Source of the DNA: Thermogemmata fonticola | GTDB taxonomy: Bacteria; Planctomycetota; Planctomycetia; Gemmatales; Gemmataceae | Assembly: GCF_013694095.1 (NCBI RefSeq) | Contig: NZ_JACEFB010000014.1 | Location: forward strand, 1 to 64,000 | Length of the DNA stretch: 64,000 bases | Direction: 5' to 3' | Shown here: positions 2-16,069 of the stretch, in pieces | Numbering within the stretch: position 1 is the stretch's first letter | How the letters are laid out: each line of letters begins with the position of its first letter | Position numbers and translations under genes: made by a program | Notes under the pieces: model-generated | Databases searched by the model: none | The model's input: the letters and a program-made list of their open reading frames with translations, nothing else | Told to the model about the DNA's origin: nothing

Positions 2-2848
2 ATCCGCTTCCTCACGGCGGGTAATGGAACTGCTGCGGCTCAGGAAAAGGAACCGACCTGTGCGAACGGTGGATCAGGCCGTCGGGAGGGTCCCGATTTT
101 TTTCCCCCCGCCTTCCCCGTGCCGCCGCCCCTAACAGCGGTTCCTGACCCTTTTCCAGAACCGTCCAAGGGCCAATGTGCTTCGGCGGTGGCAGAAATAC
201 CTGCACCTTCCGTAGAGGCGACAAGGGTACCCGTACCTTCCATAGCGGCACCATCACCTTCCATGCTGGACCGTGCTGAACCGATCCCGCCTCGTGGGGA
301 GGACGTGCCACGGCCTGATGGGGAACCGGTTTCGGTGCCTCCATTTTCTCCTCCTGGCGATTGGACCGCTGTGTTGTGCCGCCAGGTGTTGTGCTCTGTC
401 TGCTGGGGGGGTGAGCCGCGGGCCACAATACCTTGGCCGGAAGCAGGGGAAGTCTGGCTCGTGGCGGACGAGGGAGACGTACTGGCTGCGGAAGTGGGGA
501 AGGCTCTCGCGGGTCGCGGACTGTCCGTGCGCCATCAGGCGTGGGAGGCAGCCCCTGCGGGAACCCCGACGGGAAGCTGGGCGGGTCTGATTCTGGTAGC
601 GCCGCTTCAGGAACGGCCGTTCCATCCTGGGGTACTGGCCTGGTTGCAACGCGCGGCGAAGGCCTTCCCGCGATCCGGAGATCGACGGGCCTTCCTCGTG
701 GGTTTGATCCGCTTGGATGGTCAGTTCGGCTTGGGACCGCTGCGGCCGGATACACCGGTTGGGCAAAGCGGCCTGGCCGGCTGGATCAAAACCGCCCGCT
801 GGGAATGGCCGCATGTCGCTTGCAAGGTGATCGATGTGGCGCCGGAATGGTCCGAAGCTCCGGAAATGGCCGAGGAAGTGGCGGCAGAAGTGCTGGCCGA
901 CGGCCCGATTGAGATCGGACTGTCCGAACCGTGGCAGCGGTGGGTGCCGGTGCTGAAGGAGGAACCGCTGGACGGCCTCCGTGGGGATGGCCCGCTCCAG
1001 CCGGACGATGTGGTGTTGATCACCGGCGGCGGGCGCGGAGTGACGGCGGACTTGGCCCAAGCTCTGGCCGAGGCGGGACGCGGTACGCTGGTCCTGGTGG
1101 GCCGCACGCCCTTGCCGACAGGTGATCTGCCCTCCTGGTGGCCGGAGAGCGAGGAGGAGGCTGTCCTCAAGCGAGCAGTCGCCGAACATCTGGGACCTGG
1201 AGCTTCCCCACGTCAGATTCAAGAGCAGTACCAACTCCGGCGGGCACAGCAGGAATTGCAGCGGACTTTGCAGCGCCTGTCGGCCCAGGGCGCCCGGATC
1301 GCTTACTACAGCCTTGACATTGCTGACCAGGCCGCGGTGCAGCATTTGGTGGCCGAAGTTCGCCAGCGCTGGGGGCCGATCACGCGGCTGATTCACGGCG
1401 CCGGCGTGCTGGCGGACCGCCGCCTGGAGGACCTGACGGCCGAACAATTCGAGCGGGTGTACCGGACCAAGGTCATCGGCCTGGAACACTTGCTGGCGGC
1501 GCTAGGTCAGGAGCCGCTGCGGACTTTGGCGGTGTTCAGTTCGACGACGGCCCGGTTAGGTCGCACCGGCCAAGGGGCGTATGCCTGCGCCAACGAAGTG
1601 CTCAACAAACTGATGCAGCGCGAAGCCCGGCGGCGCCCTCAGACGCGCGTTATCGCCTTCAACTGGGGACCCTGGGATGGCGGCATGGTGACATCCGCGC
1701 TCAAGCGGCTGTTTGCGGCGGAAGGTGTCGGCTTGATTCCTCGCCAGGCTGGTGGCCGTTATGGAGCGTGGGAAATCCAGAAGTGGGACAGCGGAGTGGA
1801 AATTGTCATCAGTGCTCGGACTTCCGGGAAGGATGTTCCGACTTTCGCCTTGACCCTGGCCGGCACCAGCCCGGTGGGAGGGACGGGGGAACCTCTGGCC
1901 GCTCCGCGGATGCCCAGCCGGGGGAATGGGGAAGGGACGGCCTTCCGCAGCAACGGCGTGACACCCCATCCTGCGCCGCCGCGGGGAGCGGAGATGACCC
2001 TGGCATTCGAACGGCCCCTCGATGTCAGCAATCATCCGGTACTGGCCGACCATGTGCTAGAGGGGCGGGCGGTGGTGCCCGTGGCTTTGCATCTGGAGTG
2101 GCTGGCCCACGCGGCGGTGCATCGCCATCCCGGCTTGCAGTTTTGCGGCTGCGACCAGCTCCGGATTTACCACGGCCTGATGCTGGAGGCTAGCGAGTCG
2201 GCAGTGCTGCAAGTCTGGTGCGGTCCATCCTCCCGACAGGACGGCGGCTACTGGCAGACGGTGGAGGTGCGCAGCCGGGGAGCTGCCGGACGGGAATGGC
2301 TCCATGCCCGCGCTTGTGTGCTGGTGGCCGAGCAGTGGCCGGCCCCGCCGCCGACGGAACCGATACCAGAGGGCGGCCAGCCCTGGCCCTGGAGCATGGA
2401 GGATACGTATGAGCATTTGCTCTTTCACGGCCCGCAGTGGCGCGGCGTGCGGCACATTCAGAAACTGGAAGACGACCTGTGGCTGGCCAGGGTCCGAACT
2501 GCTCCGCCACCAGCCCAATGGCTCACCTCCCCCTTGCGTTCCGCCTGGCTGGCCGATCCCTTGGTCCTCGACGGCGCCTTGCAGTTGCTGATCGTGGCGG
2601 CCTACGAGCACTATCAACTGCGCTGTCTGCCCGTGGCTTTAGGGCGTTACCGCCAATACCGCCGTCACTTCCCGGCTACCGAAACCACCGTCCTCCTGCG
2701 TCTGCGTTGCCGGGAGCATGCCCTGGTGCAAGCCGACATCGAGTTCCGGGATGACCACGGCCTGATCGCTCAAATCCAGGACTGCGAGGCGGTCCTCCAG
2801 GAACAGTTGGCACGGGCCTTCCGGAACAACCGGTTGCGAAGTCATTGA
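2..2848 (+). CDS. PfaA-like polyketide/PUFA synthase, C-terminal part (KR-DH), cut by left edge
   Basis: The frame is open from the first bases of the window with no stop, so the GTG at 119 is probably an internal Val codon and the gene starts outside the window. About 948 codons are visible. A ketoreductase structural subdomain lies around nt 430-990. The catalytic KR follows at about 1010-1760, with a Rossmann loop (TGGGRGVT) and an SDR active site of the form FSSTTARLG...GAYACANEV. A C-terminal hot-dog dehydratase at about 1990-2800 carries HPVLADHVL. KR followed by DH is the C-terminal order of PfaA-type PUFA synthases (KS-AT-ACPs-KR-DH). The KS, AT and ACPs would lie upstream, which is inferred. 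The gene is followed after 79 nt by the PfaC-like gene on the same strand, so the two are probably co-transcribed. A different iterative type I PKS is possible, but the downstream PfaC partner argues for a secondary-lipid synthase. Confidence 0.8.
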   Translation: MRFLTAGNGTAAAQEKEPTCANGGSGRREGPDFFPPAFPVPPPLTAVPDPFPEPSKGQCASAVAEIPAPSVEATRVPVPSIAAPSPSMLDRAEPIPPRGEDVPRPDGEPVSVPPFSPPGDWTAVLCRQVLCSVCWGGEPRATIPWPEAGEVWLVADEGDVLAAEVGKALAGRGLSVRHQAWEAAPAGTPTGSWAGLILVAPLQERPFHPGVLAWLQRAAKAFPRSGDRRAFLVGLIRLDGQFGLGPLRPDTPVGQSGLAGWIKTARWEWPHVACKVIDVAPEWSEAPEMAEEVAAEVLADGPIEIGLSEPWQRWVPVLKEEPLDGLRGDGPLQPDDVVLITGGGRGVTADLAQALAEAGRGTLVLVGRTPLPTGDLPSWWPESEEEAVLKRAVAEHLGPGASPRQIQEQYQLRRAQQELQRTLQRLSAQGARIAYYSLDIADQAAVQHLVAEVRQRWGPITRLIHGAGVLADRRLEDLTAEQFERVYRTKVIGLEHLLAALGQEPLRTLAVFSSTTARLGRTGQGAYACANEVLNKLMQREARRRPQTRVIAFNWGPWDGGMVTSALKRLFAAEGVGLIPRQAGGRYGAWEIQKWDSGVEIVISARTSGKDVPTFALTLAGTSPVGGTGEPLAAPRMPSRGNGEGTAFRSNGVTPHPAPPRGAEMTLAFERPLDVSNHPVLADHVLEGRAVVPVALHLEWLAHAAVHRHPGLQFCGCDQLRIYHGLMLEASESAVLQVWCGPSSRQDGGYWQTVEVRSRGAAGREWLHARACVLVAEQWPAPPPTEPIPEGGQPWPWSMEDTYEHLLFHGPQWRGVRHIQKLEDDLWLARVRTAPPPAQWLTSPLRSAWLADPLVLDGALQLLIVAAYEHYQLRCLPVALGRYRQYRRHFPATETTVLLRLRCREHALVQADIEFRDDHGLIAQIQDCEAVLQEQLARAFRNNRLRSH

Positions 2849-2927
2849 CCCGTGCCCAAGGTGTCCGAGACATGCCCCTGGCAGAAGCGGGCAATTCCTG
2901 GAGCTTTCCCGGCAGGTGTAGCGACTT

Positions 2928-5900
2928 ATGAGAGCAGAGACCGTAGCGATTGTGGGCATGGCGATGCGCTTGCCTGGCGCTCAGGACCAAGAATCCCGGT
3001 ACTGGCAGGCGATTGTCCAGGGTGCAGATTGTTCCCGCGATGTGCCGCCGCAGCGGTGGATGCTCCCGCCGGAGCGCTGTTACGACTCCCGCGTAGGGGT
3101 GAGCGATTGCGTCTATTGCCGCCGGGGATACTTCCTCGAACCGTTTGTGCCCGATCTGCAGGGTTTGGACATCGATCCGTCCCTGGTGGCCCGGCTGGAC
3201 CCCCTGGTGCAACTGGTGCTGGATGTGGGGGCGCGGGCCTGGCGGAGCGCCCGCATGGAGCGGGTGGATCGTCGGCGTGTAGGCGTGGTGTTGGGGAATA
3301 TCTGCCTGCCGACAGAAGGTTCATCCGCGCTGTGCCGGTCGCTGCTGGGAGAGAGGTGGGGTCGAGCCAACGAACCGCTGCTCGCGGACAATCGGCGGGT
3401 GGCCGGTTTTCCGGCGGCGCTGCTCGCTCACGCCTTGCATCTGGGGCGGGGGGGCTATGCTCTGGATGCGGCTTGCGCCTCGTCCCTTTATGCCTTGTCT
3501 TTCGCAGTGGAAGAACTCCAAAGCGGGCGGGCGGATGCTATGCTGGCCGGAGGTTGCTGCCGTCCTGACTGCCAATACACCCAGATGGGTTTCGCCCAAT
3601 TGCGGGCTTTGTCCCTGTCGGGCCGCTGTGCTCCCTTCGACGCAGCGGCGGACGGCTTACTGGTCGGAGAAGGGGCAGCCCTGTTCGTCCTCAAACGTCT
3701 CCGTGATGCCATCCGGGACGGTGACACGATTCACGCCGTGATCCGGGGGATAGGCTTATCCAATGATCGAGCGGGTAATTTGCTCGCTCCAGCTCAGGAA
3801 GGCCAGCTCCGGGCTATGCGCCGCGCTTACGAGCAAGCCGGTTGCTTGCCCCAGGAAGTGGATTACATCGAATGCCATGCCACGGGGACTCCTGTCGGTG
3901 ATGCGGTGGAGTTTGCAAGCCTGCGGCAGTTGTGGGATAGGGGCACCTGGCGGGTCGGCCAATGCGTGCTCAGTTCGGTCAAGGCGACGGTGGGCCATTT
4001 GCTCACCGGGGCTGGAGCCGCCGCTCTGGCCAAGGTGCTGCTGGCTTTGAAGCACCAGCAACTGCCCCCGCAAGCGAACTTCACCCGCCCTTCTCCGCAA
4101 CTGGCTTATGCGGGCGGTCCATTCCGCATCGTGCAAGCCGCGGAACCATGGGACCGTCCCCGGCACCGACCCCGCCGGGCTGCTGTCAGCGCCTTCGGCT
4201 TTGGGGGTATCAATGCCCATATTGTGCTGGAAGAGTGGCAAGGTGACATGCCGCTGCCAGCAAAAGACATTTCCCCGCAGCGATTGATCCCCGTGGCCAT
4301 CGTCGGTTTGGCTAGTCACTTCGGTCCCTGGCAGGATGCTCCTTCTTTACTGGCCACCCTCCAGGGTACGCCGCCGCCTCCTCCCCGGCCGAAACGCCAG
4401 GGCTGGTCCTGGTCGCCCCGGCCCTGCCCCCCGGCGCACGCCATCGAGGAGCTGGAGTTTCCCACCGATCGCTTCCGCATACCGCCTCGGGAAATCGAGG
4501 AGACTCTGCCTCAGCAGTTGCTCATCCTGCAACTGGCCGATGCAGCCCTCGCCGATCACTGCGCAGGCCGGGAAGCCGGACGAACAGCTCGAACTGATGA
4601 CCCGCGGCGGACACAAAAACCTTCTACCTCTCCCCAGGAACGGGAAGCGGTTGCAGACTCGTCCTGTCCCGATCCTTCAAGTCACGCCTATCCGCGAATC
4701 CTGCCCACGGTGAGCCGGCATCCCACGTCCCACCGGCCAGGTGTTGATCCGCCGGGTGATGCACCCGCGGCCGGGCGGCCCCTTCCCCCGCCTGTGGCGG
4801 AAAATGGGGAGCGCTGGGGAGTCTTCATCGGTCTGGAACTGGACCCCAACACGATGAATTTCCATCTGCGCTGGAGTGCGCTGGCAGCGGGTCGGGAAGA
4901 GCTGGCCGAGCAGATCAGTCCGCCGCTCAATGCCAACCGGACCATGGGGGCACTTGGGAGCATTGCGGCCAGTCGGATCGCGCGCGCATGGGGAATCGGG
5001 GGGCCGGCTTACACCCTGTGTAATGAGGAAGCTTCAGGCTTGCGGGCGGTGCTGGCGGCGTGGCAAGCCCTTCAGAGCGGCACCATCGATTTGGCCATTG
5101 TGGGAGCGGTGGACTTCGCCGTGGACCCGCGTTCGGTGATCCCCGCAGGGTTGGTATACCCCGGTGAAGGAGCGGCTGTTTTCGTGCTGAAACGGCTAGC
5201 GGATGCCCAACGGGATGGTGACGCGATCTATGCGGTGATCCAGGGCGCGGGATGCGGTGAGGACGAACCGTCGGCCCTGGCGGAGGCCATAAAACAAGCG
5301 GGGTGGAACCTCGCAGAAACGACCCAGCTTCCCCGTGTCCACACCGCATCACTGATAGGACAATGTGGTGCCGCTACAGCAGCGGCGGACCTGGCCTATG
5401 CCGCCCTCCTGATGGGCGCGGCGGAACCGTCCTCCTTCTTCCGCCTCTTTGGCTCCCCGTCCTCCTCCGCAGGGGATCAGGCTGTCCCACCTCCGGCTTC
5501 ACGACGATGTTATGTCACGGCGTCGTCCTGTACGACCCATTTGGCTCTGGTGCTGGAGGAATACGTCCCCCGGCAGTCTGCACGACCCGTGTTCCCCCCT
5601 CCCCGTTCGACTCGGACCCTGCGCTTGCCGGTCGGCATGCCAGAGCCTGGTTCCATTTCAACAGCAGCAGCAACTTCCGCCTCCATCCCCGCTTCCTTAC
5701 TGCCGTTTCCTCTTTCTCCCCTCTCTGGACCCAGAGCCGAAGACATTCCCGTATCAGCGGGGAGAACTCCAGGAGCGACGAGCGGGTGCGGTCTCGTCGG
5801 CACTCCAGGGAGCATACCCCCCTCTTCTTCCAGTCTGTCAGCTTCTGGGGGCGTTGCCGGTGGGGCGGCGTTGCCGGTGGCAGGCCAGGCACCCCCTCTT

Positions 5901-8750
5901 CCGGAACCCGTAGCGATGAACGATCGGCTTCCTCTTACCCCCGAAGGTGGAATCCAGGCAGTGCCAGCGCTCCTCCTAGCGGCCTATGGCCGGGTTCAGG
6001 AGCAATGGCTAGGGGCACAGTCGGCCTTCCTGCGTACCCAGCAGCGATGGTTCACCTTGGCCGCCCGCCTGTGGGAACACCACCAGACCTTGCTGGCGAG
6101 TAACCCCTTGGCGGAAGAGCAGTGCTCAGACCCGGCTCCGGCCCAGAAATGGCTCCCCACTCCAGCCCAGGTACAGGAGAGAGGATTGCCGAATCGGGCC
6201 GAGACCGACCGAGTTATGCCGCCCCAGCCGGGCAGCCTGGCGATGACAGTGGTTTGTCCAGAGGGCGAGGTGCCCCGGAGCTTGAATTACGAGCAGTGTT
6301 GCCGGTTCGCCGCCGGCCGCATCGCCGAGGTACTGGGTCCCCGTTATGCCCTCATTGACACCTTCCCAACCCGCGTCCGCTTGCCGGATGGACCGCTGCA
6401 ACTGGTGGATCGCATCTTGCAGATCGAGGGCGAACCGCTTTCCCTCCAGCCGGGCCGGGTGGTTACCGAACATACGGTCCACGAACAGCGTTGGTACCTC
6501 GAAAGCAAGCGCATGCCGACAGCATTGTCGGTGGAAGCAGGACAGGCGGACTTATTCCTCAGCGGCTTTTTGGGGATCGATCTTCAGACACGAGGGGAGG
6601 CGGTGTACCGGCTGCTGGATGCGGTGGTGACCTTCCATCGCGGCTTGCCGCAAGTCGGAGAGACGATCCGCTACGATATTGCCATCGATGAATTTGTGCA
6701 GCAGGGGGGCGCCTGGCTGTTCCGCTTCCGCTTCGATGGTACGATCGGCGGCCAACCGTACATCACGATGCGGCATGGCACCGCGGGGTTCTTCACACCG
6801 GCGGCTTTGGCGGCTGGCAAAGGAATCGTCCAGACGGCCCTCGATCGGCAGGCACGTCCTGGCAAGCGCCCGGCGGATTGGCGAGAATTGGCGCCCCTGG
6901 AGCCAGCCTCTTTGGATGAACAGCAACTGGCTGCCTTGCGGCGGGGGGAGCTGGCGGCAGCCTTCGGACCGGCCTTCGCCCAGTTGGGATTGCGGCAACC
7001 CCGGACGCTGCCGGACGGCCCGCTTCGCCTGCTCGACCGGGTGCCTCACATCGATCTGCAGGGCGGACGCTTCGGACTCGGACTGATCCGCGGCGAACTG
7101 GATATCCACCCCGACGACTGGTTCCTCACCTGCCATTTCGTGGATGATCCCGTGATGCCCGGCACCCTCATGTACGAATGCTGCTTGCAAACGTTGCGGG
7201 TGGGATTACTGCGCCTGGGTTGGATTGGGGAAGCGGAAGAGGTGATGTACGAACCCGTACCGGGGATCGCCAGCCGCTTGAAGTGCCGTGGTCAAGTCAT
7301 TGGCACGACGCGCACTACTGCTTACGAGGTGACCATCAAGGAGTTGGGTTACCGCCCGGAACCGTATTGTCTGGCGGATGCCCTCATGTACGCCGACGGC
7401 AAGCCGATCGTGGAAATCCTCAACTTGTCCCTGCAGGTGAGCGGGCTGAAGCGGGAGGAGGTCGAACAGAGATGGCAGCGCTCGCACCGCCTGGGGAGTG
7501 TGGCCGATCGCAGGAGGCTGCCGTCCTCTTCAGACCCTGCTGCGGAGAAGAGTTTTGCCCCAAGCGTGCCAGCCTTCCCCTCTGAGGCGAGTGAGCCGCT
7601 GCGGCTGCTTTACGATTCTCGGCACATTCTGGCGTTTTCCAATGGCAAGCCTTCCGAAGCCTTCGGGGAACCGTACCGGATTTTTGATCATGAACGGGTC
7701 ATCGCCCGTTTGCCTGGGCCGCCGTACCAGTTCCTGGATGGCATCACGGCGGTGGAGGGCCAGCCGTTCGTCTTGCAAGCTGGGGCGAGTTGCGAAGCGG
7801 TTTATGACGTTCCGCCGTCCGCATGGTATTTCCAGGAACAGCACTCCGAATGCATGCCGCTGTGCGTGCTTCTGGAGATCGCATTGCAACCGTGCGGCTG
7901 GCTGGCGGCCTATTGCGGCTCGGCCCTGCTCAGCGACGAAGACCTATCCTTCCGCAACCTGGGCGGCTCGGCCATCCAGCACCGTCCGGTGACTCGTGCG
8001 AGCGGCCGGCTCTTCACACGCGCCCGCCTGACCCAGACGGCTCGCGCTGCCGGCATGATCCTCGAACATTTCGCCTTTGAGGTACGGGATGCTCTCGGCC
8101 CGGTTTACGAGGGAACCACCTATTTCGGTTTCTTCACAAAAGCAGCGCTCCGAGACCAAGTGGGGCTGCGGGAGGTCGCGGCAGAGCGGCGGGAACCGCC
8201 GGCCGGTCCGCCCGGCGTGCGGGAACCTTATCCCGTCCATCCGCCGTTTCCGGGACGGCAGTTGCGCATGATCGACTGGATCGAAACGTATCAGTCTGAT
8301 GGCGGCCCCTGGGGACTGGGGCGAGTCGTGGGCAGTAGCGCCGTTGACCCGTCCGCTTGGTTCTTCCAAGCCCATTTTTACCAGGACCCGGTGTGGCCTG
8401 GTTCGCTGGGGTTGCAATCGTTTCTGCAACTGCTCCAATATCTGGCCTGGCGGCGGTGGGGGACGGAAGAGACTTCGACTCATCGCTGTCCCCAGGGAGA
8501 GGGAGCAGGAACCGTGGCTCATCACTTACCGGCCAATGTTTCGTGGCAAGCTCCTGCCTTGGGTGTGCGCCATCACTGGAGCTATCGCGGCCAGATTATC
8601 CCGACCCACCAGCGCGTTACAGTGGAGGCCGACGTTGTGGCGATTGACGAACGGCAGCGGCGGCTGACCGCCAACGGATTGCTTTGGGTGGATGGCCGCC
8701 CCATTTACCGCATGGAGCAATTCACGCTGGAATGGCCGCCGGGAGGGTAA
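2928..8750 (+). CDS. pfaC: PfaC-like PUFA/secondary-lipid synthase subunit (KS-CLF-DH-DH)
   Basis: This 1940-residue multidomain protein extends and dehydrates acyl-ACP chains. Residues 1-440 form a complete ketosynthase: Cys183 in DAACASS, His317 in CHATGTP and His357 in VGHLLTGAG. Residues about 455-870 form a second KS fold in which the nucleophile position aligns with Glu701 (NEEASG), as expected of a chain-length factor. This half is interrupted by a Pro/Ser/Arg-rich insert. A low-complexity linker follows to about residue 1080, with no recognisable ACP (no DSL motif). The C-terminus holds four hot-dog units. Units 2 and 4 have clear FabA-type active sites: CHFVDDPVMPG with His1403 and AHFYQDPVWPG with His1816. 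Units 1 and 3 look like their pseudo-dimer partners. This is the PfaC layout. No PfaB, PfaD enoyl reductase or phosphopantetheinyl transferase is visible and they may lie upstream. Confidence 0.88.
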   Translation: MRAETVAIVGMAMRLPGAQDQESRYWQAIVQGADCSRDVPPQRWMLPPERCYDSRVGVSDCVYCRRGYFLEPFVPDLQGLDIDPSLVARLDPLVQLVLDVGARAWRSARMERVDRRRVGVVLGNICLPTEGSSALCRSLLGERWGRANEPLLADNRRVAGFPAALLAHALHLGRGGYALDAACASSLYALSFAVEELQSGRADAMLAGGCCRPDCQYTQMGFAQLRALSLSGRCAPFDAAADGLLVGEGAALFVLKRLRDAIRDGDTIHAVIRGIGLSNDRAGNLLAPAQEGQLRAMRRAYEQAGCLPQEVDYIECHATGTPVGDAVEFASLRQLWDRGTWRVGQCVLSSVKATVGHLLTGAGAAALAKVLLALKHQQLPPQANFTRPSPQLAYAGGPFRIVQAAEPWDRPRHRPRRAAVSAFGFGGINAHIVLEEWQGDMPLPAKDISPQRLIPVAIVGLASHFGPWQDAPSLLATLQGTPPPPPRPKRQGWSWSPRPCPPAHAIEELEFPTDRFRIPPREIEETLPQQLLILQLADAALADHCAGREAGRTARTDDPRRTQKPSTSPQEREAVADSSCPDPSSHAYPRILPTVSRHPTSHRPGVDPPGDAPAAGRPLPPPVAENGERWGVFIGLELDPNTMNFHLRWSALAAGREELAEQISPPLNANRTMGALGSIAASRIARAWGIGGPAYTLCNEEASGLRAVLAAWQALQSGTIDLAIVGAVDFAVDPRSVIPAGLVYPGEGAAVFVLKRLADAQRDGDAIYAVIQGAGCGEDEPSALAEAIKQAGWNLAETTQLPRVHTASLIGQCGAATAAADLAYAALLMGAAEPSSFFRLFGSPSSSAGDQAVPPPASRRCYVTASSCTTHLALVLEEYVPRQSARPVFPPPRSTRTLRLPVGMPEPGSISTAAATSASIPASLLPFPLSPLSGPRAEDIPVSAGRTPGATSGCGLVGTPGSIPPSSSSLSASGGVAGGAALPVAGQAPPLPEPVAMNDRLPLTPEGGIQAVPALLLAAYGRVQEQWLGAQSAFLRTQQRWFTLAARLWEHHQTLLASNPLAEEQCSDPAPAQKWLPTPAQVQERGLPNRAETDRVMPPQPGSLAMTVVCPEGEVPRSLNYEQCCRFAAGRIAEVLGPRYALIDTFPTRVRLPDGPLQLVDRILQIEGEPLSLQPGRVVTEHTVHEQRWYLESKRMPTALSVEAGQADLFLSGFLGIDLQTRGEAVYRLLDAVVTFHRGLPQVGETIRYDIAIDEFVQQGGAWLFRFRFDGTIGGQPYITMRHGTAGFFTPAALAAGKGIVQTALDRQARPGKRPADWRELAPLEPASLDEQQLAALRRGELAAAFGPAFAQLGLRQPRTLPDGPLRLLDRVPHIDLQGGRFGLGLIRGELDIHPDDWFLTCHFVDDPVMPGTLMYECCLQTLRVGLLRLGWIGEAEEVMYEPVPGIASRLKCRGQVIGTTRTTAYEVTIKELGYRPEPYCLADALMYADGKPIVEILNLSLQVSGLKREEVEQRWQRSHRLGSVADRRRLPSSSDPAAEKSFAPSVPAFPSEASEPLRLLYDSRHILAFSNGKPSEAFGEPYRIFDHERVIARLPGPPYQFLDGITAVEGQPFVLQAGASCEAVYDVPPSAWYFQEQHSECMPLCVLLEIALQPCGWLAAYCGSALLSDEDLSFRNLGGSAIQHRPVTRASGRLFTRARLTQTARAAGMILEHFAFEVRDALGPVYEGTTYFGFFTKAALRDQVGLREVAAERREPPAGPPGVREPYPVHPPFPGRQLRMIDWIETYQSDGGPWGLGRVVGSSAVDPSAWFFQAHFYQDPVWPGSLGLQSFLQLLQYLAWRRWGTEETSTHRCPQGEGAGTVAHHLPANVSWQAPALGVRHHWSYRGQIIPTHQRVTVEADVVAIDERQRRLTANGLLWVDGRPIYRMEQFTLEWPPGG

Positions 8751-8756
8751 AGGCCC

Positions 8757-8828
8757 AGGGGTTCGCCGGATTTGAGCGTGAGGATAAAGGGGTCTGCCGG
8801 ATTCGACCGTAAGGATGCTGGGGTTCCC
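8757..8828. repeat. Imperfect 31-bp tandem repeats between pfaC and oleA
   Basis: Two adjacent 31-nt units begin at 8757 and 8788. They share AGGGGT, TGCCGGATT-like and GTAAGGAT-like blocks, and a third partial unit starts at 8819 with TGGGGTTCC. They lie just after the pfaC stop in the 231-nt gap before oleA. No hairpin is obvious. They could be a regulatory spacer or a decayed duplication. Only the repetition is seen; any function is unknown. Confidence 0.5.
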
Positions 8829-8981
8829 ACGATCCGACTACCATCAGACGGAACAGGAAAGCAGTGTACGTTCGGTCGGCTGCCATCCGGGTGCACGAGT
8901 TCTACAGTGATGGAGATATGGTCGTTGTGGGTGTGAAGCATTTGGAGCTAAGAGTCGGGTGTCCGGCCACGGAAGCTGAGC

Positions 8982-10106
8982 ATGCGCTATTCGCAGGTGC
9001 ATATTGAGGCCATCGGCTATGAACTGCCGCCTGTGGTCGTTTCGACGGCGGATTTGGAGGCCCGGTTGCAACCGGTATATGAGGCGTTGCAATTGCAGCC
9101 GGGGCAGTTGGAATTGCTGACGGGGATCAACGAGCGGCGCTGGTGGGAGCCAGGTTATCCGTTGTCGGAAGGTGCTGCGGCAGCAGCACGCAAAGCCCTG
9201 GCGGCGGCTGAGCTGGACCCGGCCCAAGTGGATGTGCTGATCTACGCGGGCGTCTGCCGGGAGCAATTCGAGCCAGCAACGGCCTGCGCTGTCGCAGCCC
9301 GCTTGGGCATCGGCGGACACGCTCTCATCTACGATCTGAGCAATGCCTGTCTGGGGGTGCTCAACGGCGTGCTCGATATCGCCAACCGGATCGAATTGGG
9401 CCAAGCCCGCGCCGGCCTGGTCGTTTCTGCTGAGACGGCCCGCGAGATCAACGAAAACATCATCGATCAGATCATCCGCACGAGATCCTTGGAGCTATTC
9501 CGGGCATCGATTGCCACTCTCACAGGCGGTTCGGGAGCGGTGGCGGTGCTAGTGGTGAGCGAAGAGCTGTCGCGCCACAAGCGGCGCAAGGTGCTTGGCG
9601 GCGTAGCTCAGGCGGCCCCGGAGTATCACGCCCTCTGCCGTTGGGGCATGCGCTCGCTGCTGCCTGCGACTGTGCACACCGTGGAGAAGCTCTTCGGCAC
9701 GCAAGCGGGTGTCTTGCTCCAGCGCGGCTTGGATTTCGGCCTCAAACACGTCATGGTGCCCTTCATGGAAACTCAGGCTGGTGAGCTACTCAAATACGGC
9801 ATCGAAGTCGGCCTGCGCACCTGGAAGCGCTTCCTGAGTACCTTCGGTTGGGCCGTCGAGGAAATCGACAAAGTCATCTGCCATCAGGTGGGAGCGGTAC
9901 ATCGTGAGACCATGTTGCGGGCCTTTGGCATCCCTCCGGAAAAGGACTTCAGCACCTATCCTTATCTGGGAAATATAGGGACTGTTTCCTTACCCCTGAC
10001 GGCAGCGTTAGCTGAGGAACGCGAGTTCCTGCGCCCCGGAGATCGTGTCGGCTGGCTGGGTATCGGCAGCGGCTTGAATTGCCTGATGCTGGGTCTGGAA
10101 TGGTAG
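8982..10106 (+). CDS. oleA: OleA, head-to-head acyl-CoA/acyl-ACP condensing thiolase
   Basis: OleA joins two fatty acyl thioesters by a non-decarboxylative Claisen condensation to a long 2-alkyl-3-keto acid, the first step of long-chain olefin synthesis. The 374-residue length is typical. The thiolase-fold catalytic residues are all present: Cys123 in NACLG, His301 in CHQVG and Asn331 in GNIGTVSLP. Glu97 in REQFEPATA matches the glutamate that distinguishes OleA from FabH and reaches into the partner subunit. It lies 231 nt after pfaC and is followed by oleB, oleC and oleD in pathway-cluster order. FabH or an HMG-CoA-synthase-like function is unlikely given the Ole neighbours. The gene family is seen; the chain length and unsaturation of its substrates are inferred. 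Confidence 0.95.
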   Translation: MRYSQVHIEAIGYELPPVVVSTADLEARLQPVYEALQLQPGQLELLTGINERRWWEPGYPLSEGAAAAARKALAAAELDPAQVDVLIYAGVCREQFEPATACAVAARLGIGGHALIYDLSNACLGVLNGVLDIANRIELGQARAGLVVSAETAREINENIIDQIIRTRSLELFRASIATLTGGSGAVAVLVVSEELSRHKRRKVLGGVAQAAPEYHALCRWGMRSLLPATVHTVEKLFGTQAGVLLQRGLDFGLKHVMVPFMETQAGELLKYGIEVGLRTWKRFLSTFGWAVEEIDKVICHQVGAVHRETMLRAFGIPPEKDFSTYPYLGNIGTVSLPLTAALAEEREFLRPGDRVGWLGIGSGLNCLMLGLEW

Positions 10107-10241
10107 TAGGAAGCGATGGCAGCAAGCGGGTGTTTCCAGCGTGGCCTAGCGCCGAGCGGGCGTGGAGCGGCTATCCTGGAGCACGCGCGGCCCTTGGGCT
10201 GGTGAGAGGGAAGTGGCCCGTGAGATGGAAGTGACAAGACT

Positions 10242-11210
10242 ATGTCTATTCAGGAAGGGTTGCGTGTACCATCCCCGAAGATGCCGACGGTTGCGGGGTC
10301 CTTACACCCGGAATATCCCTGGACCTCGCGCTGGTTCGAAGTAGCCGGCGGCTGGCGGCTCCATTACGTGGATGAGGGGAGCGGGCCGCCAGTCGTGTTC
10401 CTGCATGGCAACCCGACCTGGAGTTTTTACTTTCGCCGGGCCATTGCTCATCTCCAGCCATTCTTTCGTTGCATTGCGATGGATCACATCGGTTGCGGTT
10501 TGTCGGATCATCCCTCGCCTCAGGAGTACGACTATTCCCTCCGGCGGCGCATCGACGATGTGGAAGCCCTGGTCGAACACGTGGCTCCGGGACAGCCGAT
10601 CGCGTTGGTAGTGCACGATTGGGGCGGGATGATCGGACTGGGGTGGGCGGCCCGGCATCCGGAGCGGTTGGCAGCGTTGGTGGCGATGAACACAGCGGCC
10701 TTTCCCAAACCGGCGGCGAAACGCCTGCCTTGGGGTCTGTGGCTGGCCCGCCATACAGCTTTGGGGGCCTTTCTCGTCCGTCGGACCCGCCTGTTCTGCC
10801 GCCTCGCTGCGCGCTGGTGCGTCGTGCGCCGACCGCTGCCGCCGGAGGTCCGCCGCCTGTATCTGTTGCCTTACCGCTCGGCGGCCCAGCGCTGGGCCAT
10901 CCTCCGGTTTGTCCAGACCATTCCCCTGCGCAGTACCGACGCCGGCTACGACATCGTCGAGCAAACGGCCGCCTGTTTTTCCCGCTGGCAGCGGGTGCCG
11001 GCTCTGCTGCTGTGGGGATTGGCGGACTTTGTCTTCGACCGGCATTTTCTCGAAGCCTGGCAGCGGTATCTGCCCCAGGCCCAGGTGCAGGCCTGGGCGG
11101 ACGCCGGACATTACCTGCTGGAGGATGCCCCGGAGGAAGTCCTGCCCGCTCTGCGCGATTTCCTGGTGCGACATTACCATTCGCTGTCGCCGCCGGAAGC
11201 CGTCCGTTAG
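10242..11210 (+). CDS. oleB: OleB, alpha/beta hydrolase (beta-lactone decarboxylase)
   Basis: OleB belongs to the haloalkane-dehalogenase-like branch of alpha/beta hydrolases and converts the cis-beta-lactone made by OleC into an olefin plus CO2. The protein has 322 residues. It shows the HGNPTW oxyanion region at residues 55-60, the nucleophile Asp126 in the HDWGG elbow and a C-terminal catalytic His in DAGHYLLED. Asp rather than Ser at the elbow is the OleB/dehalogenase signature. It starts 135 nt after oleA, and the oleC start lies 20 nt after its stop. In some bacteria OleB and OleC are fused; here they are separate, although the frame of oleC stays open far back through oleB. Confidence 0.92.
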   Translation: MSIQEGLRVPSPKMPTVAGSLHPEYPWTSRWFEVAGGWRLHYVDEGSGPPVVFLHGNPTWSFYFRRAIAHLQPFFRCIAMDHIGCGLSDHPSPQEYDYSLRRRIDDVEALVEHVAPGQPIALVVHDWGGMIGLGWAARHPERLAALVAMNTAAFPKPAAKRLPWGLWLARHTALGAFLVRRTRLFCRLAARWCVVRRPLPPEVRRLYLLPYRSAAQRWAILRFVQTIPLRSTDAGYDIVEQTAACFSRWQRVPALLLWGLADFVFDRHFLEAWQRYLPQAQVQAWADAGHYLLEDAPEEVLPALRDFLVRHYHSLSPPEAVR

Positions 11211-11230
11211 CAAATGGCTCGGAGCCGAAA

Positions 11231-13042
11231 ATGAAGTCTGCCCCGAGGGAGTCAGGGTCCATGCCGAGGATGATTTCTCCCGCCACGACGGCAGAGGCGG
11301 CGCTCAATGTTGCAATGCATCTGGTGCGTCAAGCGGCGGAGACGCCGCAGCGGCCGGCCCTGTATGTGCCGCAGCGTGCGGTGCGCGGGGACCGCCCTAC
11401 ACCCCACCGGGTCATCACTTATGCCGAGTTGAATGCCGACAGCGACGCCCTGGCCCACGGTCTGGAAGCCGCTGGTGTCGAGCGGGGAACGCGCGTGGCT
11501 GTGTTCATTCCGCCGTCGCCGCAGTTTTACGCTGTGGTTTTCGCTTTGTTCAAGCTGGCCGCCGTACCGGTGTTCATTGACCCAGGCATGGGATGGCAGG
11601 GTTTAAAACGCTGCCTGGAACGAGCGGAACCGGCAGCCTTCGTCGGTGTGCTCCGGGCGCATCTCGCCCGTTGGCTGTTCGGTTGGGCAAGGTCCTCGCT
11701 CCGCCTGAGCATTCACGCCGGGCGCCGCCGCTTCTTCTGCGATTACTCTTTGGAGGAACTTCGCCGCTTGGGCAGTACCCGCGGAACCTATCCGATCCCC
11801 GCTGTTTCCGCCGAGGAGATGGCTGCTATCCTCTTCACCAGCGGCAGCACCGGACCGGCCAAAGGAGCGGTGTACACCCACGGCATCTTCGCTGCCCAGG
11901 TGCAGATGCTTCGCCAGGCGTTCGGTATTGCGCCGGGAGAAGTGGACTATGGCACGTTTCCGCTCTTTGCCCTGTTCGGTCCAGCTTTGGGCATGAGTTG
12001 CGTCATCCCGGATATGGACGCCAGTCGGCCCGCCCGCCTGCGGCCGGACAAAGCGATCGCCCAAATGCGGCAATTCACCGTCACAAACATGTTTGGCTCG
12101 CCCGCGGTGATCCGCGTCCTGGGGGAATGGTACCATCAGCGCTGGGGTAGTTCCTTGGCCGGGTCGCAGGCATCGGCTTCATCACCGTCGGCACCGGAAG
12201 CGGAGGGTCCGCTATTGCCCGCTTTGCGCCGGGTAATCTCGGCGGGAGCACCGGCCAGTCCGCTGCAGTTGCAGCGTTTCACCGCCCTGTTGCCGGCTGC
12301 GGTTCCCATTTACACACCCTACGGGGCGACCGAAGCCTTGCCCGTGGCCAACATCGACAGTGGAGAAATCCTCCACGAGACGCAAGCGCTGACGGCGCAG
12401 GGGCGCGGCGTCTGCATCGGCCGGCCGTTGCCGGGCATCCGCCTGCATATCATTCCCATCACCGACGAAGCCATCCCGCAGTGGCGTGAGGAACTGGAAC
12501 TGCCCACAGGCGTCATCGGCGAGCTGGTGGTGCGGGGGCCAATCGTCACTCCTCGCTATTACAAGCAACCCGAAGCGACACAATTGGCCAAAATCTATGA
12601 TCCGACGACCGGCGAAATCTTGCATCGGATGGGAGACGTGGGCTACCGCGACGAACAGGGGCGCATCTGGTTTTGCGGGCGGAAATCCCAGCGAGTGGTG
12701 ACGCCTTGGGGAACCCTGTTCACGGATATGGTAGAACCAGTTTTTCATGGTCTGCCTGGAGTAGGGCGGACTGCCCTGGTCGGTGTGGAGCGCGGCGGGG
12801 TCACTTATCCGGTGCTGTGCGTGGAGTGGGACCGGACAGAGCCGTGGGCGGTTGTGGAGTCTTCCCTGCGGCAGAAGGCCCAGAGCCTGGAATCGACGCG
12901 CACCATCGCTGCCTTCCTGGCCCATTCCCGGCCCTTTCCCGTGGATCGCCGCCATAATGCGAAAATTGCTCGCGAATCCCTGGCACGCTGGGCCGATCGA
13001 CGCCTCGGTCCCCACTGGCAACCTCGACAGGATACAACCTGA
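11231..13042 (+). CDS. oleC: OleC, AMP-binding beta-lactone synthetase
   Basis: OleC uses ATP to adenylate the beta-hydroxy acid from OleD and close it to a beta-lactone. The adenylate-forming core is clear: the phosphate loop ILFTSGSTGPAKGA, the TPYGATEALP motif and the hinge region GYRDEQGRIWFCGRKSQRV. The same frame is open back to 10469, but that stretch is the shadow of oleB. The ATG at 11231 is preceded by GGAG with 6 nt spacing and gives 603 residues, a normal OleC length. ATGs at 11261 and 11270 are alternatives. The stop overlaps the oleD start in TGATG, which points to translational coupling. A short Ser/Ala-rich insert follows the central region (GSQASASSPSAPEAEG). Confidence 0.93.
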   Translation: MKSAPRESGSMPRMISPATTAEAALNVAMHLVRQAAETPQRPALYVPQRAVRGDRPTPHRVITYAELNADSDALAHGLEAAGVERGTRVAVFIPPSPQFYAVVFALFKLAAVPVFIDPGMGWQGLKRCLERAEPAAFVGVLRAHLARWLFGWARSSLRLSIHAGRRRFFCDYSLEELRRLGSTRGTYPIPAVSAEEMAAILFTSGSTGPAKGAVYTHGIFAAQVQMLRQAFGIAPGEVDYGTFPLFALFGPALGMSCVIPDMDASRPARLRPDKAIAQMRQFTVTNMFGSPAVIRVLGEWYHQRWGSSLAGSQASASSPSAPEAEGPLLPALRRVISAGAPASPLQLQRFTALLPAAVPIYTPYGATEALPVANIDSGEILHETQALTAQGRGVCIGRPLPGIRLHIIPITDEAIPQWREELELPTGVIGELVVRGPIVTPRYYKQPEATQLAKIYDPTTGEILHRMGDVGYRDEQGRIWFCGRKSQRVVTPWGTLFTDMVEPVFHGLPGVGRTALVGVERGGVTYPVLCVEWDRTEPWAVVESSLRQKAQSLESTRTIAAFLAHSRPFPVDRRHNAKIARESLARWADRRLGPHWQPRQDTT

Positions 13043-14034
13043 TGAAAGTGCTGGTCACGGGTGGCGGCGGCTTTCTCGGGGGAGCGATCGTCCGCTTGCT
13101 CCACCAGCGGGGCGATACCGTCCGCTCCTTGACGCGCACCCATTACCCCTGGCTGGACGAGCTAGGCGTCGAGCAAACCCTGGCTGATCTGGCCGATGCG
13201 GCGGCTGTGGCCCGCGCGGTCGAAGGGTGCGAACTGGTCATCCACACGGCAGCTAAGGCTGGCATCTGGGGGCGCTATGCCGACTTCTATGCCACCAACG
13301 TCCTCGGCACGAAGAATATTCTGGCAGCCTGCCGCCAGCACGGTGTGCCCCGCTTGGTATACACCTCCACACCGAGCGTCGTTTACGGCGGCAAGGACAT
13401 CATCCGCGGCGATGAATCCCTGCCCTACCCGTCCCGCTACAGCGCCTACTACCCGCAAACCAAAGCCGAAGCCGAGCGGCTGGTCCTGGCAGCCAATAGC
13501 CCAGAACTGGCTACCGTGGCCCTGCGCCCCCATTTGATCTTTGGACCCGGCGACTCCCACCTGATTCCCCGCCTGCTGGAACGAGCACGGCAGGGACGCC
13601 TCCGCCGCATCGGCCGTCGGGCTGTCCAGGTGGATGTCACCTACATCGACAATGCAGCCTATGCCCATCTCGATGCCGCCGATCGGCTCCAGCCGCATGC
13701 CCCCTGCGCGGGCAAAGCCTACTTCATCACCAATGGCCAGCCGGTGGACCTGTGGGACTTCATCAACCGCATCCTCGAACTGGCTCAACTCCCCCCTGTG
13801 ACCAAGACCATTCCCGCCTGGTGGGCACGCACCCTGGGTACCCTGTGCGAAACCGCCTACTGGCTCCTCCGCCTCCCCGGCGAACCCCCCATGACCCGCT
13901 TCGTCGCCGAGCAACTCTCCACCTGCCACTACTTCGACATTTCCGCCGCCCACCGCGACCTCGGCTACTATCCCCGCTTGACTCTAGAAGAAGGTTTGCA
14001 ACGTCTGGCCCAGCATCTCCGCCCGGCCTCATGA
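13042..14034 (+). CDS. oleD: OleD, NAD(P)H-dependent 2-alkyl-3-ketoalkanoate reductase
   Basis: OleD reduces the beta-keto acid made by OleA to the beta-hydroxy acid used by OleC. It is an extended short-chain dehydrogenase of 330 residues with a GGGGFLGG dinucleotide loop at the N-terminus, a TSTPSVVYGG segment providing the catalytic Ser/Thr region, and YYPQTKAEAE providing the YxxxK pair. It overlaps oleC by one base (TGATG) and closes the cluster. A second, clearly related SDR lies at 28073-29122. Confidence 0.93.
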   Translation: MKVLVTGGGGFLGGAIVRLLHQRGDTVRSLTRTHYPWLDELGVEQTLADLADAAAVARAVEGCELVIHTAAKAGIWGRYADFYATNVLGTKNILAACRQHGVPRLVYTSTPSVVYGGKDIIRGDESLPYPSRYSAYYPQTKAEAERLVLAANSPELATVALRPHLIFGPGDSHLIPRLLERARQGRLRRIGRRAVQVDVTYIDNAAYAHLDAADRLQPHAPCAGKAYFITNGQPVDLWDFINRILELAQLPPVTKTIPAWWARTLGTLCETAYWLLRLPGEPPMTRFVAEQLSTCHYFDISAAHRDLGYYPRLTLEEGLQRLAQHLRPAS

Positions 14035-14245: not shown

Positions 14246-16069
14246 TCAGCCGACGAAGATCCCCTGAAGGGCCGAGATCGAGCTGGGGGGGAAGATCGGG
14301 GGAAGTGGCAGGACACTGGTAGCGTTGAGTCGCAGGACACGCAGCCAGGCGAGGGAGCCGCTCGCGGGAGCCGTGATGAGACTGGTGCGGCCGGAACCGT
14401 CCACATCGCGGGCCAACAGCCGAATGCCACTGCGGTCCGTTACCCCGTTGGCAAAAAACTGCAAGCGCAATGACAGTGCCTCGCTGGAGGCAACTCCATT
14501 CCAGACACGAACCAGGGACAAACCGCCAGCATCCAGACTGGTCATCAATTCGGCCCGTCCATCGCCATCCAGATCGCCGGCCGTGACATTGACGCCGTTG
14601 CGCCAAGTGGGGTCGAAGGCGAAAAATGCCGAGCGCTGCAAGCGGACTTGGCCGTCCGCCAGTGCAGCTCCGTCGTAAATCCGCACCACCGGCGACCACC
14701 CCGGCCCCGCACTAGCAATCAGGTCGGCCCGTCCGTCTCCATTCACGTCCCCCATGGCCACCCGCACCCCCGATCGCGCCAGAGGGTGAAGCACCTGGAT
14801 GTAACTGAGGTATGCCAACTGTGCCTGGGCCACCCGCGCCACCGTCACGACAGGACTGCCGCCGGCATCGGCACTGATGGCGACTTCCGCCCGGCCATCT
14901 CCGTCGATGTCTCCCGCCGCGAGAAAGACGCCGCCGCCGAATCCTCCCAGCACGGGGGTGACCGGAAGCAGGTCGGCCCCTGTGACGCCATCTACGATCC
15001 GCACTCGTGCCGCCACACCCGGCCCGGTGGCAAAGAGATAATCCACCCAGCCATCGCCGTTGACATCAGCACTCGTGGCCCGGATCACTCCGCGATAATT
15101 CGCACCAAACGGTGTGAAACTCAACCCGCTGAAAGACACATTCCCTGTGGCATCGAAGCCGTAAACCTGCACGGTCGGATTGCCTGCGGAACTGACCAGC
15201 ACCGGCGGGCGAGTCACGGGGAAGCGCACGGCCAGTCCTGCCGGTGCCGGTGCTGCCCAACCCAGATCATATAAGGCCGCCTGGTCCAGCGCCGACCAGC
15301 CGACCCGGCGCCCATAGTAGAGATACGGACTCATCGCCGCGGCTTGACCGCTGACGCGCACACCATCCGCCCAATGGGCGCGCTCCGAAGACAGCGGCAC
15401 CGGACCGCCATAAATGCTTTGCGCTTGCCGTCCCACAAATTGATTCCCTTGAACTTGCGACCACCATTGCCGCGCTGTGCCGATGCCCAGCACGTGGCCC
15501 AATTCATGCACCGCGGCGGAGTAGAAATCCAGTTGGTCCGCCCGCAATCCCGACGGATCCAGGCCAAAATACCAGTTGCGGCTGGAATCGAAAGCAATGC
15601 TTCCCCCCCACAGGGAAAAACCGCTCCACTGCCGCGTCGCCAAAAGCTGGCCCCAACTCGCTGAACCGGACCAGCTATAGCCCCCATAACCTCCGAACCC
15701 CGCCTCCGCTCCGGGAATGGACCGGCCGCCCACATACACAATGATCGTATCCGCCGGTACACGCAGATTGGGAAGGGAGTAGAGACTGCCGGTACCGGGA
15801 TGATAGACCGTCGCTGTCCAAGTGTTGCTTCCGGAGGGAGAAATCGCTGCCAAGCGTGCGTCAATCCGCTGCCCCATCTCATAGGCGGCTTGTTCCATCA
15901 CCTGCCGCGCTGCGGGATGAGTGGTGAAAAAGCCCGTGCCGCCATTAGCTGGTGAATCCAGCGAATAATCAATCCGAATGGTAATCGACGGGACCTCCCG
16001 TTCCTCCAGCACTTCCAAGCCCAAGACTGCCGCTGACCCGTATGACCCGCCGTTTTTCGGACGCTCCAT
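14246..16069 (-). CDS. Matrixin-like metalloprotease with FG-GAP/VCBS repeats, surface protein
   Basis: A 607-residue protein, probably exported. It begins with a planctomycete-type motif (LEVLEEREVPS, residues 18-28) in place of a normal signal peptide. Residues about 30-260 resemble a matrixin domain with HELGHVLGIGT: His188, Glu189 and His192 are in place, but the usual third zinc ligand is Thr198, so another ligand must serve if zinc is bound. From about residue 320 to the C-terminus there are FG-GAP-like repeats, each with calcium-loop motifs such as DVNGDGWVD, DIDGDGRAE and DVNGDGRAD, which predict a beta-propeller. It is convergent with oleD and alone on its strand here. The substrate is unknown. 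Confidence 0.8.
   Translation of the reverse strand: MERPKNGGSYGSAAVLGLEVLEEREVPSITIRIDYSLDSPANGGTGFFTTHPAARQVMEQAAYEMGQRIDARLAAISPSGSNTWTATVYHPGTGSLYSLPNLRVPADTIIVYVGGRSIPGAEAGFGGYGGYSWSGSASWGQLLATRQWSGFSLWGGSIAFDSSRNWYFGLDPSGLRADQLDFYSAAVHELGHVLGIGTARQWWSQVQGNQFVGRQAQSIYGGPVPLSSERAHWADGVRVSGQAAAMSPYLYYGRRVGWSALDQAALYDLGWAAPAPAGLAVRFPVTRPPVLVSSAGNPTVQVYGFDATGNVSFSGLSFTPFGANYRGVIRATSADVNGDGWVDYLFATGPGVAARVRIVDGVTGADLLPVTPVLGGFGGGVFLAAGDIDGDGRAEVAISADAGGSPVVTVARVAQAQLAYLSYIQVLHPLARSGVRVAMGDVNGDGRADLIASAGPGWSPVVRIYDGAALADGQVRLQRSAFFAFDPTWRNGVNVTAGDLDGDGRAELMTSLDAGGLSLVRVWNGVASSEALSLRLQFFANGVTDRSGIRLLARDVDGSGRTSLITAPASGSLAWLRVLRLNATSVLPLPPIFPPSSISALQGIFVG

What the first reader, a model, noticed from the sequence alone, without database searches (positions are those of the whole stretch)
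2..14034. Pfa-type lipid synthase directly followed by a complete oleABCD cluster
The order is PfaA-like (KR-DH visible), PfaC-like, then oleA, oleB, oleC and oleD on one strand, with an oleC/oleD start-stop overlap. OleA normally draws on the general fatty-acid pool; in Shewanella the linked use of Pfa products gives a polyunsaturated C31 hydrocarbon although the clusters are separate. Here they are adjacent, so the synthase may feed OleA as a dedicated donor. The product, perhaps a polyunsaturated hydrocarbon or ketone, has not been shown.
Basis: partly seen in the sequence, partly recalled or inferred. Interest (0 to 1): 0.8.

Follow-up and report, generated by a model that had tools for sequence, protein, structure and literature searches.

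The report
Lipid synthase feeding a hydrocarbon-making cluster
This planctomycete carries one seven-gene cassette that very probably builds polyunsaturated acyl chains and joins them head to head into a long hydrocarbon; the arrangement is already known from Geobacter and others, and the only unusual point is that the synthase has lost the domain that normally releases free fatty acid.

Summary
Window 2-14034 holds the end of pfaA (KR-DH), pfaC and a complete oleABCD on one strand, with catalytic residues conserved in OleA and in PfaC's KS and two FabA-like DH domains. The window begins at a contig start. The missing part lies at the end of contig C11, which holds pfaD and pfaA KS-MAT; the two contigs break at the two edges of the ACP region. 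The cassette is therefore pfaD-pfaA-pfaC-oleA-oleB-oleC-oleD.

The adjacency is not new. The same order is published for Geobacter bemidjiensis, which makes the C31:9 hydrocarbon. Pfa "Type I" clusters, including Gemmata's, were proposed in 2011 to feed Ole. I find the order in many phyla (67 of 76 testable loci). In the window's family, OleA occurs only where PfaC occurs (26 of 28 against 0 of 9 genomes). So "dedicated donor" is well supported, but it is a known kind.

One feature looks new. PfaC of this genus (two species) lacks the PfaB-type acyltransferase present in 75 of 81 PfaC homologues. The loss arose at least three times, and every AT-less pfaC is followed by oleA. That suggests, without proving it, off-loading by OleA alone.

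The parts
2..2848 (+). 3' part of pfaA: last residues of an ACP, then KR and PS-DH; the 5' part (KS-MAT) is at the end of contig C11
   Evidence: KR 2.2e-38, PS-DH 7e-13; TIGR02813 positions 1905-2581; first residues IRFLTAGNG match the end of the G001 ACP (LRDVLLFLTSSGKN) by eye
2928..8750 (+). pfaC: KS, chain-length-factor-like domain, two FabA-type DH regions; no acyltransferase domain
   Evidence: KS 2.9e-67, FabA 3.3e-72; invariant C183, H317, H357, H1403 and H1816; no AT
5540..6197 (+). Pro/Ser-rich linker between CLF and DH1, where 75 of 81 homologues carry the PfaB-type AT (about 310 residues)
8982..10106 (+). oleA (thiolase-fold acyl-ACP/acyl-CoA condensing enzyme); Glu97, Cys123, His301 and Asn331 conserved
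   Evidence: PRK09258, 463 bits; invariant columns; aligned to Xanthomonas OleA 3row
10242..11210 (+). oleB (haloalkane-dehalogenase-like beta-lactone decarboxylase)
   Evidence: conserved position in relatives
11261..13042 (+). oleC (beta-lactone synthetase, AMP-binding superfamily); exact start uncertain (11231 or 11261)
   Evidence: (NF045786, 599 bits; cut-off 900)
13042..14034 (+). oleD (2-alkyl-3-oxoalkanoate reductase)
   Evidence: NF042422, 447 bits; cut-off 580; TGATG overlap with oleC

Best explanation
The locus encodes one pathway, pfaD-pfaA-pfaC-oleABCD. The Pfa synthase (KS-MAT-ACPn-KR-DH, KS-CLF-DH-DH and a PfaD enoyl reductase) builds polyunsaturated acyl chains on the ACPs of PfaA. 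OleA takes two of these chains straight from the ACPs and condenses them into a 2-alkyl-3-oxoacyl product. OleD reduces this, OleC closes a beta-lactone and OleB removes CO2, giving a long polyunsaturated olefin, by analogy hentriacontanonaene (C31:9). In this genus the PfaB-type terminal acyltransferase is gone from PfaC, so OleA is probably the only exit for the chain. Shown here: the genes, domains, conserved active sites, gene order, co-occurrence and AT loss. Inferred: co-transcription, substrate, product and the exclusive off-loading.
For: Domains and residues. The split gene is continued on the neighbouring contig. The same contiguous seven-gene order in most relatives examined. The same order in Geobacteraceae, Acidobacteriota, Verrucomicrobiota, Elusimicrobiota, Gamma- and Betaproteobacteria. 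67 of 76 loci with enough downstream sequence have oleA directly after pfaC, median gap about 57 nt. Family co-occurrence 26/2 against 0/9. pfaC and oleA trees share the same cross-phylum groups, for example Verrucomicrobiota with Betaproteobacteria, which points to joint transfer. All genes are held under purifying selection between the two congeners, with synonymous sites near saturation. Literature: G. bemidjiensis has the same order and makes C31:9 (PMC4882568); co-expressing pfaA-E with oleA in E. coli gives a 31:8 ketone, also in a fadD mutant, so without acyl-CoA synthetase (PMC6463001).
Against: I found no product, transcript or protein measurement for a planctomycete of this kind. The pfaC-oleA gap here is 232 nt, longer than the median, though no sigma-70-type promoter was found in it. 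The ACPs themselves fall in an assembly gap. Three AT-containing relatives keep oleA elsewhere (G014, G024, G028), so adjacency is not obligatory.
Confidence: 0.75

Rival explanations
1. The Pfa synthase makes free polyunsaturated fatty acids for the membrane, and OleABCD works mostly on the general fatty-acid pool; the adjacency is co-inheritance without substrate coupling.
For: OleA of other bacteria uses the general acyl-CoA/ACP pool (established for Xanthomonas and Micrococcus; own knowledge). In three relatives the two clusters are apart.
Against: No genome of the family has OleA without PfaC. The PfaB-type AT that releases free PUFA (PMC12895367; PMC8174602) is missing here. Coupling has been shown with Shewanella genes (PMC6463001).
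Confidence: 0.12
2. The AT-less synthase is still unloaded by another acyltransferase (the MAT of PfaA, FabD, or an unrecognised thioesterase), so the AT loss has no bearing on OleA.
For: PfaA keeps a MAT and a FabD-like protein exists on C8. AT presence and oleA adjacency are not statistically linked (6/6 against 61/70, p = 1).
Against: No PfaB-type AT elsewhere in G000 or G001. In the Moritella system pfaB cannot be dispensed with (PMC12895367).
Confidence: 0.35
3. The synthase has decayed: AT loss made it unable to make a product, and the cassette is on its way out.
For: Loss of a domain that is essential in other systems (PMC12895367).
Against: All genes are open in both species with amino-acid conservation far above that of synonymous sites; OleA is 95% identical while 63% of fourfold sites differ.
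Confidence: 0.05

Closest known systems
Geobacter bemidjiensis pfaD-A-B-C-oleA-B-C-D-pfaE tandem cluster (PMC4882568; Type I of Shulse and Allen, PMC3098273)
   Same: Same gene content and order; Type I also covers Gemmata obscuriglobus; the proposal that it feeds Ole is the same.
   Different: No AT in the PfaC of this genus; no pfaE next to the cassette (phosphopantetheinyl transferases unlinked).
Shewanella / Photobacterium pfaABCDE plus oleABCD (PMC6463001)
   Same: Homologous enzymes; OleA condenses Pfa-made chains; adjacent in P. profundum SS9.
   Different: There PfaB is a separate protein and EPA or DHA is also made; pfa and ole can be apart; a PfaT thioesterase is linked in many strains.
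Xanthomonas campestris OleA / OleABCD
   Same: Catalytic Glu, Cys, His and Asn aligned; same four enzymes.
   Different: Uses the general acyl pool and no Pfa synthase (own knowledge); OleA distantly related (longest branch).

Membership tests
Pfa-type secondary lipid synthase, Type I (PMC3098273) | pfaA with KS-MAT-multiple ACP-KR(-DH) | tested here: inconclusive
   KS-MAT on C11 and KR-DH in the window; the ACPs fall in the gap. The congener G001 has one contiguous gene with 2 ACPs.
Pfa-type secondary lipid synthase, Type I (PMC3098273) | pfaD enoyl reductase | tested here: met
   TIGR02814, 603.8 bits against a cut-off of 449.25, directly before pfaA.
Pfa-type secondary lipid synthase, Type I (PMC3098273) | pfaBC fusion, i.e. 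an AT domain within PfaC | tested here: not met
   No AT by Pfam or by a purpose-built HMM that scores 261-498 bits in 75 of 81 homologues. It is therefore an AT-less derivative, not a standard Type I.
Pfa-type secondary lipid synthase, Type I (PMC3098273) | FabA-like dehydratase/isomerase domains in PfaC | tested here: met
   FabA 3.3e-72; two HFxxDPVxPG motifs with invariant His.
OleABCD head-to-head hydrocarbon pathway | All four genes, in order | tested here: met
OleABCD head-to-head hydrocarbon pathway | OleA catalytic Cys-His-Asn and the dimer-crossing Glu | tested here: met
   C123, H301, N331 and E97 align with Xanthomonas OleA and are invariant in the 17 aligned sequences.
OleABCD head-to-head hydrocarbon pathway | Head-to-head olefin in the cells | not testable with these tools
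   Needs hydrocarbon extraction and GC-MS.

The most novel reading that the evidence does not exclude
In a few lineages, this genus among them, the Pfa synthase has given up its terminal acyltransferase and depends wholly on OleA to unload its ACPs. It is then a hydrocarbon-only megasynthase that cannot deliver free polyunsaturated fatty acid to the membrane.
Probability: 0.4. Interest if true: 0.5.

Novelty: new variant of a known kind. Interest (0 to 1): 0.33.

Why it matters
The pfa-ole coupling itself is known. The AT-less form is a natural experiment on an open point: whether OleA takes chains directly from the Pfa ACPs, as was suggested for Shewanella genes, or needs PfaB first. It also shows that pfa-ole is a widely shared cassette in planctomycetes and other non-marine bacteria, so its product is unlikely to be only a cold- or pressure-adaptation lipid.

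Tried and rejected
Adjacency as a novelty: rejected, since the order is published and common. A separate PfaB elsewhere in the genome: not found with a relative's AT domain, nor in four other AT-less genomes, where only weak MAT-like hits of 22-32% identity appeared. Recent gene transfer as the cause of the 95% identical OleA in the congener: rejected, because fourfold sites differ as much as in neighbouring genes. A link between AT loss and oleA adjacency: not significant (p = 1). The pfaA ACP array elsewhere in the assembly: none found. OleA-like proteins of other class members (39-41% identity) as unlinked ole clusters: they have no oleB, C or D beside them. Thermophily of the genus: only hints (16S G+C 58.6%; highest IVYWREL share for the window genome among those compared), with exceptions, so not claimed.

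Full report
What is there. The window begins at the first base of contig C14 of a 4.8 Mb, 61-contig genome. Its first 14 kb hold, on the + strand, the 3' part of pfaA (KR and polyketide-type DH), pfaC (KS, chain-length factor, FabA-like dehydratases), oleA, oleB, oleC and oleD. oleC and oleD overlap by one base.

What lies upstream. pfaD and the KS-MAT part of pfaA lie at the end of contig C11, on the + strand, with pfaA running off the contig. By eye, the last residues of C11 (DSGSVA) match the start of an ACP in the congener G001, and the first residues of the window (IRFLTAGNG) match the end of one. The two contigs share no end overlap, and no ACP array turned up elsewhere in the assembly. 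The break is therefore the ACP region, and the join is inferred. In G001 and many other relatives the same genes are contiguous.

How common the arrangement is. I fetched the surroundings of pfaC from 23 relatives and mapped each domain by tblastn. A collection scan added 79 named loci. The order pfaD-pfaA-pfaC-oleABCD recurs in Gemmataceae, other Planctomycetota, Geobacteraceae and other Desulfuromonadales, Acidobacteriota, Verrucomicrobiota, Elusimicrobiota, Gamma- and Betaproteobacteria, Sumerlaeota and others. Of 76 loci with enough sequence downstream, 67 have oleA directly behind pfaC, median gap about 57 nt (a few genomes occur twice in this set). In the window's family, 26 of 28 pfaC-bearing genomes have OleA, and none of nine without pfaC has it (Fisher p = 4e-7, not corrected for kinship). 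The two exceptions are fragmented assemblies whose pfaC lies on a short contig. Trees of the PfaC dehydratase region and of OleA show the same cross-phylum groups, such as Verrucomicrobiota with Betaproteobacteria. The cassette seems to move and persist as a unit.

Literature. Shulse and Allen (PMC3098273) defined Type I pfa clusters, including Gemmata obscuriglobus and Geobacter, noted that ole genes are often linked to such clusters, and proposed that Type I supplies olefin precursors. A 2016 review (PMC4882568) states that G. bemidjiensis carries pfaD, A, B, C, oleA, B, C, D and pfaE in tandem and makes hentriacontanonaene. PMC6463001 shows in E. coli that pfaA-E with oleA gives a 31:8 ketone, also without acyl-CoA synthetase, and notes pfa and ole adjacent in Photobacterium profundum.

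The variant. PfaC of the window and of its congener G001 lack the acyltransferase domain that sits between CLF and DH in relatives. An HMM built from relatives scores 261-498 bits inside PfaC in 75 of 81 loci and finds nothing in six: G000, G001, L138, L143, L168 and L173. In the 19 AT-bearing rows of the alignment the SLG nucleophile motif and the HC motif are kept; in the two congeners the region is replaced by a low-complexity linker. The tree needs at least three changes for five of these; L173 was not placed. No PfaB-type AT was found elsewhere in G000 or G001. PfaB is described as the terminal acyltransferase that decides the PUFA product and is required in the Moritella system (PMC12895367); earlier work cited in PMC8174602 has its AT release free fatty acid. 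All six AT-less pfaC are followed by oleA, but so are most AT-bearing ones, so this is consistent with off-loading by OleA alone without being a test of it.

Is the AT-less cassette alive? Between G000 and G001 fourfold-degenerate sites differ by 48-71% in every gene, while protein identity is 55-95%, highest in OleA. This is purifying selection on all parts. OleA active-site residues align with the Xanthomonas enzyme and are invariant in the 17 aligned sequences.

Verdict. A real, functional-looking pfa-ole cassette of a known kind, in an AT-less variant that I did not find described in the papers searched. The product is inferred, not shown.

Noticed in passing
window 8982-10106 against L053/L054 (G001): OleA is 95% identical between the two congeners although fourfold sites differ by 63% and other cassette genes are 55-86% identical; stronger constraint on OleA than in most other pairs compared.
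   Followed up: partly
window OleA residues about 226-262 (about 9657-9767): Many Gemmataceae OleA carry an insertion of variable length after LCRWG that is absent from Xanthomonas OleA and from several relatives such as L061 and L062.
   Followed up: no
L178-L183 (G058, G046, G056, G050, G047, G045): Other planctomycete families have an OleA-like protein (39-41% identity) with no oleB, C or D beside it; possibly a different condensing enzyme.
   Followed up: no
L184, L185, L186, L187 (G028, G024, G014): In three relatives with AT-bearing pfaC, oleA (with or without oleBCD) lies far from the pfa genes.
   Followed up: partly
L199, L200: 16S G+C of the two AT-less congeners is 58.6%, above four of the five other relatives measured (53.8-58.1%; the fifth has 61.7%); with a high IVYWREL share this hints at moderate thermophily.
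   Followed up: partly
window 14246-16069, - strand: A large gene with a metalloprotease-like HELGHVLG motif and FG-GAP-like repeats (seen by eye) converges on oleD; it is not part of the cassette.
   Followed up: no
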